DNA of 64,000 bases from Tritonibacter scottomollicae (lineage in GTDB: Bacteria; Pseudomonadota; Alphaproteobacteria; Rhodobacterales; Rhodobacteraceae). Location: assembly GCF_003003215.1 (NCBI RefSeq), contig NZ_PVUF01000002.1, forward strand, positions 124,001-188,000, read 5' to 3'. Under the pieces are notes generated by a model that was not told the origin of the DNA, ran no database searches, and saw only the letters and a list, made by a program, of their open reading frames with translations. A program made the position numbers and the translations under genes. Shown here in pieces: positions 52,639 through 54,012 of this stretch (positions are counted from its first letter, which is position 1; every line of letters starts with the position of its first letter).

Positions 52639-54012
52639 GTGGCTGAAGACAAGAAATCCGGCGACACGGTGAAACCGGATCCAGAAACGTCACGGGCTGA
52701 CGTTCATCAGGACACCGTAACTCCCGACGTTGGCGCAGAAGAGATCGAGGAGCGTCTTGCCACGGAAGAGCTTGACGACTTTGCTGAAACCGAAGTTCCT
52801 CTTTCCGAGACCGAGACCGAGACCGAGACCGAGACCGAGACCGAGACCGAGACCGAGACCGAGACCGAGACCGAGACCGAGACCGAGACCGAGACCGAGA
52901 CCGAGACCGAGACCGAGACCGAGACCGAGACCGAGACCGAGACCGAGACCGAGACCGAGACCGCCTCTGCAGAGAATGAGGTTGCGTCTGCGACGCAGGC
53001 ACAAGAGCGTATCGTGGAAAAACGTGGTGGATTTGGTGCGGCCCTCTTGGGCGGCGTTGTCGCGGCAGTCGTTGGTTTTATTGCCGGCAAGGGGGACGTG
53101 CTGGACGACTTCTTGCCGCCGTCCATGCGGGATGCATCGGTTGATGTTGAACCGCTCAAATCGGCTCAGGCTGAGCTGGACTCTGAACTGGCACGCCTGC
53201 GCAGTACTGTCGCCGAGATCAACGTACCTGATCTGCAACCGCTCCTAGACCGGATTGCGGCGGTTGAAACCGAGATGGAGAGCGCCGCCACTGATCAGGA
53301 GAATGACCCCGTCGGCGCGGAACTGGAACAAACACTTCGGTCCCTCGTGCAGCGTGTGGACGCTCTGGAGGCGCGCCCGATCACAGAAGGCGCCTCGTCC
53401 GAGGCTGTTGCTGCGTTTGAGGCGGAGCTTCAGCGGGTGCGCGACAGTTTGACAGAGCAGCAAGCGGACGTTGAACGCATGGTCGCCGAGGCCCAGGAGA
53501 TGGAGCGCGTTAGCGCAGAAGCCGCACGTATCGCCGCGGCACAATCCGTGGTGTCGCGCCTGCGCTCCGCGTTGGATTCAGGAGTGAGCTATAGTGATCT
53601 CGTCGAGGAGTTGACACGTCTGCAGATCACAGTGCCGGACGAGATCAAGAGCGCGGCTGATACCGGTGTTGCGACATTGTCCGGGCTGCAAGACGGGTTC
53701 GCACCTGCGGCGCGAGCGACCCTGGCCGCAGCGCGTGAGGAAACCAGAGGGTCTGGCGGGATTATGGCCTACGTCAATCGCCACCTTGGTGCGCGCTCGG
53801 TTGCGCCGCGTGAAGGGGATGATCCAGATGCCATCCTGTCCCGTGCTGGAGCTGCAGCAGATAGCGGTGATATCGCCGCAGCACTGGACGAGATTTCAGC
53901 CCTTCCTGAAAGTGCACAGGCGGAGCTTGCCGATTGGCAAAGCGCAGCCCGCACGCGTCTGGAAGCAGAAGCTGCCACCGACACGCTCTCGCAAAGCCTG
54001 AACGCCAACTAA
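52639..54012 (+). CDS. Mitofilin/Mic60 family inner-membrane protein with (Glu-Thr)26 repeat
   Basis: From the GTG at 52639 (ggggagg upstream) the protein has 457 residues. It has an acidic N-terminus, a pure Glu-Thr repeat at 57-108, one membrane segment at about 131-152, a long coiled coil, and a C-terminal mitofilin-like segment (AAADSGDIAAALDEISALPE). Alphaproteobacterial Mic60 encoded beside hemD and a hemY-like gene is known and shapes intracytoplasmic membranes or contacts the outer membrane. The repeat is 26 exact copies of gagacc; it is low-complexity and not a family feature. Confidence 0.85.
   Translation: MAEDKKSGDTVKPDPETSRADVHQDTVTPDVGAEEIEERLATEELDDFAETEVPLSETETETETETETETETETETETETETETETETETETETETETETETETETETASAENEVASATQAQERIVEKRGGFGAALLGGVVAAVVGFIAGKGDVLDDFLPPSMRDASVDVEPLKSAQAELDSELARLRSTVAEINVPDLQPLLDRIAAVETEMESAATDQENDPVGAELEQTLRSLVQRVDALEARPITEGASSEAVAAFEAELQRVRDSLTEQQADVERMVAEAQEMERVSAEAARIAAAQSVVSRLRSALDSGVSYSDLVEELTRLQITVPDEIKSAADTGVATLSGLQDGFAPAARATLAAAREETRGSGGIMAYVNRHLGARSVAPREGDDPDAILSRAGAAADSGDIAAALDEISALPESAQAELADWQSAARTRLEAEAATDTLSQSLNAN
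52807..52962 (+). repeat. Hexanucleotide microsatellite (gagacc)26 in mic60
   Basis: The 6-bp unit gagacc is repeated 26 times without interruption (156 bp), in frame, coding Glu-Thr. Because the unit is six bases, gain or loss of units keeps the frame. The tract is open in all six frames, which produces spurious ORFs of Arg-Pro, Gly-Leu and Ser-Val repeats. Confidence 0.98.

What the first reader, a model, noticed from the sequence alone, without database searches (positions are those of the whole stretch)
52807..52962. Uninterrupted (gagacc)26 tract in a bacterial Mic60 gene
Twenty-six exact copies of a 6-bp unit encode 52 alternating Glu and Thr residues in front of the membrane segment of a mitofilin homologue. 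Perfect units imply recent expansion by slippage or gene conversion. Since the unit is six bases, length can change without a frameshift and could tune linker length, charge or phosphorylatable Thr at a membrane-shaping protein.
Basis: partly seen in the sequence, partly recalled or inferred. Interest (0 to 1): 0.7.

Follow-up and report, generated by a model that had tools for sequence, protein, structure and literature searches.

The report
Recurrent acidic repeat in bacterial Mic60
In one family of bacteria, the tail of a protein related to the one that shapes mitochondrial membranes often contains a perfectly repeated six-letter DNA word, whose length and wording differ between species while its negative charge stays.

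Summary
In detail: 26 perfect GAGACC units (52807-52962) encode (Glu-Thr)26 in the N-terminal segment of a Mic60/mitofilin homologue, just before its membrane segment. All 17 same-genus genomes with a detected mic60 carry such a tract at this place. Of 122 N-termini read (best-scoring relatives, not random), 33 from 17 of 106 genera have a perfect hexanucleotide run of 6-28 copies; none has 3-5. The unit differs: Glu-Thr, Glu-Ala, Glu-Pro, and one compound Glu-Ser/Glu-Thr. In 6 of 17 same-genus assemblies the mic60 contig ends inside the tract. Constant are alternating Glu and a narrow negative charge (-0.29 per residue); Thr is not, so Thr phosphorylation is unlikely to be the point. Best reading: an acidic disordered tether, selected for charge and rough length, whose letters are rewritten by in-frame slippage. 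Similar arrays occur elsewhere in the family, also in other acidic linkers, so mic60 is a hot spot of a wider habit and neutral expansion remains a serious rival. Variation within a species and any effect on membranes are untested. The exact count of 26 comes from a draft assembly.

The parts
52639..54012 (+). mic60/mitofilin homologue, 457 aa, GTG start (the mechanical ORF list starts at a TTG 24 bases upstream)
   Evidence: the VA-E/D/V-x-K start region is shared by the nine same-genus sequences aligned
52639..52806 (+). acidic N-terminal flank, residues 1-56, with a motif like EERLATEELDDFAETEVPLS shared by several same-genus species
52807..52962 (+). (GAGACC)26 tract = (Glu-Thr)26, residues 57-108
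52963..53013 (+). 17-residue spacer between the tract and the start of the conserved core (EKRGG motif)
53014..53100 (+). basic EKRGG motif and predicted membrane helix (modelled helix 133-149)
   Evidence: helix modelled at low confidence
53398..54009 (+). long helix 254-314 and C-terminal mitofilin region (mostly confident from about residue 291, with a dip near 371-390)
51850..52587 (+). hemD (uroporphyrinogen-III synthase), upstream neighbour
   Evidence: Pfam HEM4
54023..55528 (+). hemY-like TPR membrane protein, downstream neighbour
   Evidence: Pfam HemY_N; NCBIfam matches below their cut-offs

Best explanation
The tract is part of an acidic, probably disordered tether of about 110 residues before the single membrane helix of Mic60, on the cytoplasmic side. 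Selection keeps the composition (Glu alternating with Thr, Ala, Pro or Ser, net charge near -0.3 per residue) and a rough length, but not the letters. The letters are rewritten by in-frame gain and loss of six-base units, probably slipped-strand replication, so each species holds a nearly pure array with its own unit and copy number. Shown: position, purity, copy numbers, unit types, charge. Inferred: cytoplasmic side (KR before the helix, and known Mic60 topology, recalled), slippage as the engine, selection on charge, and the physical role: a self-repelling acidic brush that spaces Mic60 molecules or keeps the cytoplasmic leaflet free and so tunes assembly or curvature.
For: Same place in 33 of 122 N-termini, in 17 of 17 same-genus genomes with a detected mic60 and in 17 of 106 genera; 7-47 residues before the core. 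Runs are 6-28 perfect copies or at most 2, never 3-5. The detector accepted any pair of different codons, yet all 33 units encode Glu plus Thr, Ala, Pro or Ser. On a tree of 57 cores, tract presence needs at least 6 gains or losses and unit class at least 7 changes. Compound arrays look like one unit replacing another (G001: GAGTCC x14 then GAGACC x6; G013: two GAGGCC units inside GAGACC). N-terminal net charge per residue -0.29 (sd 0.04, n=27 with tract) against -0.18 (sd 0.11, n=88 without); median total length 109 against 113.5, p 0.60. Residues 1-131 are modelled without structure and at low confidence. [quoted passage not shown]
Against: No strain-level copy numbers and no phenotype. 89 of 122 orthologues read have no such tract, six of them inside the tract-rich clade, so a repeat is not needed. 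Tract length does not clearly trade off against the rest of the linker (Spearman -0.26, p 0.19). Similar hexanucleotide arrays occur in other genes of the family, and the backward-read control word CCAGAG occurs in more genomes (18 of 246) than GAGACC does (9 of 246), so a general tendency to such arrays explains much of it. The flank is fast-evolving. Start codons were chosen by rule, relatedness was not corrected for, and the 122 rows are similarity-ranked, not random.
Confidence: 0.55

Rival explanations
1. Neutral by-product: the linker tolerates almost any soluble sequence; hexanucleotides expand there because six-base steps keep frame, and nothing about the repeat is selected.
For: Many orthologues lack the tract yet keep a linker of similar length. 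Comparable arrays arise elsewhere: a TonB protein, zinc-ribbon-type membrane proteins, other Glu-rich proteins, and one array (L232) in no clear gene. The control word CCAGAG is found in 18 of 246 genomes.
Against: A tolerant linker should show varied dipeptides; all 33 tracts are Glu plus Thr, Ala, Pro or Ser, and charge is narrow. The site is hit far more often than the sampled background: one other long perfect array in 400 kb of each of two genomes.
Confidence: 0.28
2. Contingency-type length rheostat: the array is kept hypermutable so that cells of one clone differ in tether length and thus in Mic60 behaviour.
For: Pure arrays with changing unit in 17 genera; copy number differs between related species (12 against 6 at 84.5% core identity); mic60 contigs end inside the tract in 6 of 17 same-genus genomes.
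Against: A six-base unit cannot switch the gene off by frameshift; there are no within-species data; in the four-genome Haemophilus study coding hexanucleotide repeats did not vary in length (PMC2651432, passages).
Confidence: 0.12
3. Translation-level effect: the acidic run destabilises the translating ribosome and its length sets Mic60 output.
For: Nascent chains rich in Asp/Glu near the N-terminus can abort translation in bacteria and eukaryotes (PMC9718836, abstract and passages).
Against: The tract starts at residue 57, past the first 30-40 residues where that paper sees avoidance in yeast, and the cases described are consecutive or dense Asp/Glu. The mRNA is not unusually structured (z +1.64), though that does not bear on nascent-chain effects.
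Confidence: 0.04
4. Assembly or sequencing artefact inflating the repeat.
For: Draft genome; assemblies of relatives fail at this site, and in G004 the two contig ends disagree beyond the tract.
Against: 17 GAGACC copies sit in a relative held as three contigs (G008), and tracts occur in independent assemblies of 17 genera.
Confidence: 0.01

Closest known systems
Alphaproteobacterial Mic60/mitofilin (inner-membrane shaping)
   Same: C-terminal mitofilin match, predicted N-terminal membrane helix and long helical body, hem gene neighbours
   Different: A dipeptide tract in the linker is not mentioned in the review passages read (PMC12136173); the primary papers were not read
PopZ acidic disordered linker (Caulobacter)
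   Same: Conserved charge (-0.28 per residue) and length rather than sequence; a tunable self-repelling linker (PMC9512792, passages)
   Different: Proline-rich; the passages read say nothing of perfect arrays; PopZ has no membrane helix (recalled) and forms polar condensates
TonB X-Pro dipeptide repeats
   Same: Alternating dipeptide spacer in an envelope protein (title seen in the reference list of PMC6821194); a TonB protein of relative G009 carries a perfect Pro-Glu hexanucleotide array
   Different: TonB's spacer is periplasmic and follows its membrane helix (recalled); Mic60's tract precedes it
Simple-sequence contingency loci (Haemophilus, Neisseria)
   Same: Long pure short-unit arrays inside a gene, differing in length between genomes
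   Different: A six-base unit keeps frame, so no on/off switching; within-strain variability not shown

Membership tests
Mic60/mitofilin | C-terminal mitofilin domain | tested here: met
   PF09731 above cut-off, residues 391-451; orthologue profile matches the MIC60-MIC19 chain 7pv1 at profile positions 267-326, E 0.0011 (where several unrelated coiled coils score better over the helical body). Against: Pfam listed no Mitofilin at E 0.001 for three orthologues (L039 full length; L024 and L030 cores), NCBIfam gave no family, Foldseek no significant match
Mic60/mitofilin | single N-terminal membrane helix followed by coiled coil | tested here: inconclusive
   helix 133-149 modelled at low confidence; long helix 254-314 modelled (three-row alignment)
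Mic60/mitofilin | bends membranes / shapes inner-membrane folds | not testable with these tools
   reported for alphaproteobacterial Mic60 (review PMC12136173, passages)
Phase-variable contingency locus | length change switches expression by frameshift | tested here: not met
   unit is six bases and in frame in all 33 tracts
Phase-variable contingency locus | high-rate length variation within a strain | not tested
   one genome per species held; no reads available
PopZ-type acidic linker | strong, narrow negative charge with unconserved sequence | tested here: met
   net charge per residue -0.29, sd 0.04, n=27 carriers; broader in the 88 non-carriers (-0.18, sd 0.11)
PopZ-type acidic linker | forms condensates tuned by the linker | not testable with these tools
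   none

The most novel reading that the evidence does not exclude
The mic60 linker of this family is an evolved length rheostat: a perpetually renewed in-frame microsatellite, kept far longer than any one unit type lasts, that makes sister cells differ in the size and charge of the brush on their membrane-shaping protein, so that inner-membrane architecture is bet-hedged by replication slippage.
Probability: 0.12. Interest if true: 0.8.

Novelty: new variant of a known kind. Interest (0 to 1): 0.5.

Why it matters
It is a natural series of one protein with 6 to 28 copies of several kinds of acidic dipeptide at one place, so the question of what a disordered tail does for a membrane-bending protein can be tested with ready-made alleles. 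It is also a case where the letters of a repeat turn over while its charge stays, which helps to separate selection on composition from slippage. Practically, the tract splits mic60 across contigs in some assemblies, so surveys of bacterial Mic60 may truncate it.

Tried and rejected
Thr phosphorylation as the point of the tract: rejected, Ala or Pro stands in its place in 13 of 33 carriers.

Link to photosynthetic intracytoplasmic membranes: reaction-centre genes (PF00124) were found in 7 of 57 tree genomes, in 1 of 33 tract carriers (G159) and 6 of 24 without tract, and not in the window's genome. The tract is not an adjunct of phototrophic membranes. Relatedness was not corrected for.

RNA structure: the tract region folds no better than shuffles (z +1.64). 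Choice of synonymous unit by low mRNA structure: GAAGCC and GAAGCA are the two least structured of eight Glu-Ala options, but GAGACC and GAGCCT are each fifth of eight and GAGTCC tenth of twelve, so no rule. Codon use, counted on seven regions of the window only, does not explain CCT.

Length compensation inside the linker: weak and not significant.

Third-position test of the N-terminal flank (nine same-genus sequences): differences by codon position 635/606/995 over 1892 pairwise codon comparisons, with more non-synonymous (1027) than synonymous (302) differing codons. The flank is fast-evolving; coding is supported by shared motifs, a modest third-position excess and an open frame, not by strong constraint.

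Foldseek against the PDB: 45 matches up to E 10, best E 1.6, none significant.

Backward-read controls: void for GAAGCC, since the backward word is a rotation of the same repeat; zero in 24 genomes for GAGCCT; for GAGACC x5, present in 3 of 34 genomes (G009, G013, G261) and for GAGACC x6 in 18 of 246.

Literature: ten searches; I saw listings, several capped (for example 20 of 49 and 10 of 81), and only the starts of abstracts. No listed title or abstract start reports a repeat in bacterial Mic60. Passages were read in PMC12136173, PMC9512792, PMC6821194, PMC9718836 and PMC2651432. The primary papers on bacterial Mic60 cited in the review (Tarasenko 2017, Munoz-Gomez 2023) were not read.

Rows left out: the 122 rows exclude loci whose match did not begin at the core start or was a second place (L038, L040, L044, L051, L052, L054, L057, L059, L061-L075) and duplicates (L039, L076-L078, L084, L086, L097). 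The non-duplicate excluded loci and L039 were read; the longest alternating Glu run among the non-duplicates was 5 (L063, mixed codons). One search used 115 of 122 rows: the six contig-edge rows and one short row were dropped. Of the 240 family genomes with mic60, the lower-scoring remainder was not read. My note says 16 same-genus carriers; the recount gives 17.

Full report
What is there. The window holds hemD (51850-52587), a mic60/mitofilin homologue (GTG 52639 to 54012) and a hemY-like gene (54023-55528) on the + strand. Inside mic60, 52807-52962 is 26 exact copies of GAGACC, read as Glu-Thr. It covers residues 57-108 and ends 17 residues before the conserved core that begins with EKRGG and leads into the predicted membrane helix. 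No other tandem array in the window reaches the TRF threshold, and three consecutive GAGACC occur nowhere else in the held 4.68 Mb genome. The overlapping frames listed across the tract arise because a stop-free six-base repeat leaves frames open; they are not evidence of genes.

Relatives. Searching 101 genomes (own included) with the Mic60 core gave 66 with a match; a profile search of 246 genomes of the family, one per genus, gave 240. I read the N-termini of 122 orthologues, chosen among the better-scoring ones and not at random. 33 carry a perfect in-frame hexanucleotide run of 6-28 copies; none has 3-5; 20 have 2 and 69 have 1. The script accepted any two different codons as a unit. The 33 are all 17 same-genus genomes with a detected mic60 (one further genome, 67% complete, had no match) and 16 of 105 other genera. 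Units: GAGACC (Glu-Thr) in 19; GAAGCC in 8 and GAAGCA in 1 (Glu-Ala); GAGCCT (Glu-Pro) in 4; and one compound GAGTCC/GAGACC (Glu-Ser/Glu-Thr). 24 of the 27 tracts not cut by a contig end follow a Ser codon. The window's 26 copies are second to 28 in G234 among those 27. None of the 60 lower-ranked regions fetched carries a tract.

Turnover. Cores have diverged (46-74% identity to the window within the genus) while the arrays are DNA-pure apart from units at their edges and two compound arrays. Related species differ in copy number: 12 against 6 at 84.5% core identity (G005, G016), 12 against 17 at 79% (G005, G008), 26 against 12 at 74% (G000, G005). On a maximum-likelihood tree of 57 cores, one clade of 38 rows (support 99/97) holds 32 of the 33 carriers and six non-carriers, and G056 lies outside it; presence or absence needs at least 6 changes (5 forced by well-supported branches) and the unit class at least 7. 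G001 and G013 look like arrays caught while one unit replaces another; that is an inference.

Assembly breaks. In 6 of 17 same-genus genomes the mic60 contig ends inside the tract. On the hemD side, the contig ends inside the tract in four of the six (G001, G002, G003, G013), ends just before it in G010, and in G004 runs through five units and ends 16 bases beyond, in sequence that does not match the mic60-side contig. About 0.12 such breaks would be expected in a 400 bp stretch over 17 genomes, giving a probability of about 9e-10 for six or more (simple contig-density model with rounded sizes). The true lengths there are unknown, and the window's own count comes from a 72-contig draft.

How special is mic60? 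Exact-array searches for the three main units give: GAGCCT x4 in 4 of 24 genomes, all at mic60; GAAGCC x4 in 10 of 24, eight at mic60 and two in other Glu-rich proteins; GAGACC x5 in 20 of 34, with the per-genome counts accounted for by the mic60 tracts (place list truncated; units recounted). These sets were chosen largely for carrying tracts. In the one-per-genus sample, GAGACC x6 occurs in 9 of 246 genomes: four at mic60 and five elsewhere. The backward-read control word CCAGAG, which reads Pro-Glu in one frame, occurs in 18 of 246, so long pure hexanucleotide arrays are not rare in the family. Of these other loci I read eight, among them: a TonB protein (L223), a zinc-ribbon membrane protein (L222 by Pfam) and a look-alike (L235, by eye), an unassigned Glu/Pro-rich protein (L221), a protein with a sub-threshold DUF2497 match (L218, E 0.017), another Glu-rich protein (L219) and a GD-repeat protein with the array just after an N-terminal hydrophobic stretch (L231). 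Two do not fit the pattern: L232 sits in no clear gene, and the short L220 array lies at the end of a long unrelated frame. In 400 kb samples of G000 and G008, one other long perfect array was found in each (period up to 12, at least 4 copies and 18 bases). So pure short arrays are a habit of the family, and the mic60 linker is a repeated hot spot.

What is conserved. The N-terminal segment is mostly acidic with or without the tract (107 of 115 net negative). Carriers are more negative and less variable (-0.29, sd 0.04, n=27) than non-carriers (-0.18, sd 0.11, n=88), while median length hardly differs (109 against 113.5, p 0.60) and the non-repeat part is shorter (77 against 113.5) (start codons chosen by rule, relatedness not corrected for). 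The tract seems to stand in for irregular acidic sequence rather than being added to it. Thr, the array letters and, by expectation from composition, structural tendency (Glu-Ala helix-prone, Glu-Pro extended; recalled) are not conserved. AlphaFold leaves residues 1-131 unstructured at low confidence (three-row alignment, mean pLDDT 56.7).

Mechanism. I think the most likely account is an acidic disordered tether before the membrane helix of Mic60, selected for charge and approximate length and rewritten by in-frame slippage. The closest worked-out parallel is the PopZ linker, whose charge (-0.28 per residue) and length are conserved and tune behaviour (PMC9512792, passages). Steps shown: position, purity, unit and copy-number variation, charge. 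Steps inferred: slippage, selection, topology and physical role. The strongest rival is neutral expansion in a permissive linker. The repeated choice of Glu plus a small residue argues against a purely neutral account but does not exclude it.

Novelty. Ten full-text searches in the held open library listed no paper on a repeat in bacterial Mic60 in the titles and abstract starts shown. The primary papers on bacterial Mic60 were not read, so this is not proof of novelty. In-frame hexanucleotide repeats in bacterial genes and dipeptide linkers are both known kinds; the recurrent, unit-switching tract at one juxtamembrane site of Mic60 is the new part.

Noticed in passing
L185 1422-1517 (own genome G000:C2:211422-211517, outside the window): 19 perfect copies of the pentamer CACAG; a five-base unit would shift frame if it lay in a gene. 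No convincing gene was seen over it.
   Followed up: partly
L222 1501-1572 and L235 1501-1560: Two zinc-ribbon-type membrane proteins from different genera carry Glu-Pro x12 and Glu-Thr x10 hexanucleotide arrays in an acidic linker, the mic60 pattern in a second protein family (L222 Zn_ribbon_4 by Pfam; L235 judged by eye).
   Followed up: partly
L218 3222-3299: Glu-Ala x13 array in an acidic protein with a sub-threshold DUF2497 match (E 0.017), in a genome whose mic60 carries Glu-Thr.
   Followed up: partly
L211 14540-14580: ACAGTT x6.8 array in the G008 sample, not in an obvious gene.
   Followed up: no
mic60 places of G048, G129, G152, G292, G117 and G123: In these genomes the contig ends 2.0-2.7 kb downstream of the mic60 core, about beyond where hemY would end; unexplained second break point.
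   Followed up: no
window 52807-52962: GAGACC is the reverse complement of the BsaI recognition word (recalled), so the tract would be a ladder of 26 such sites, a nuisance for cloning.
   Followed up: no
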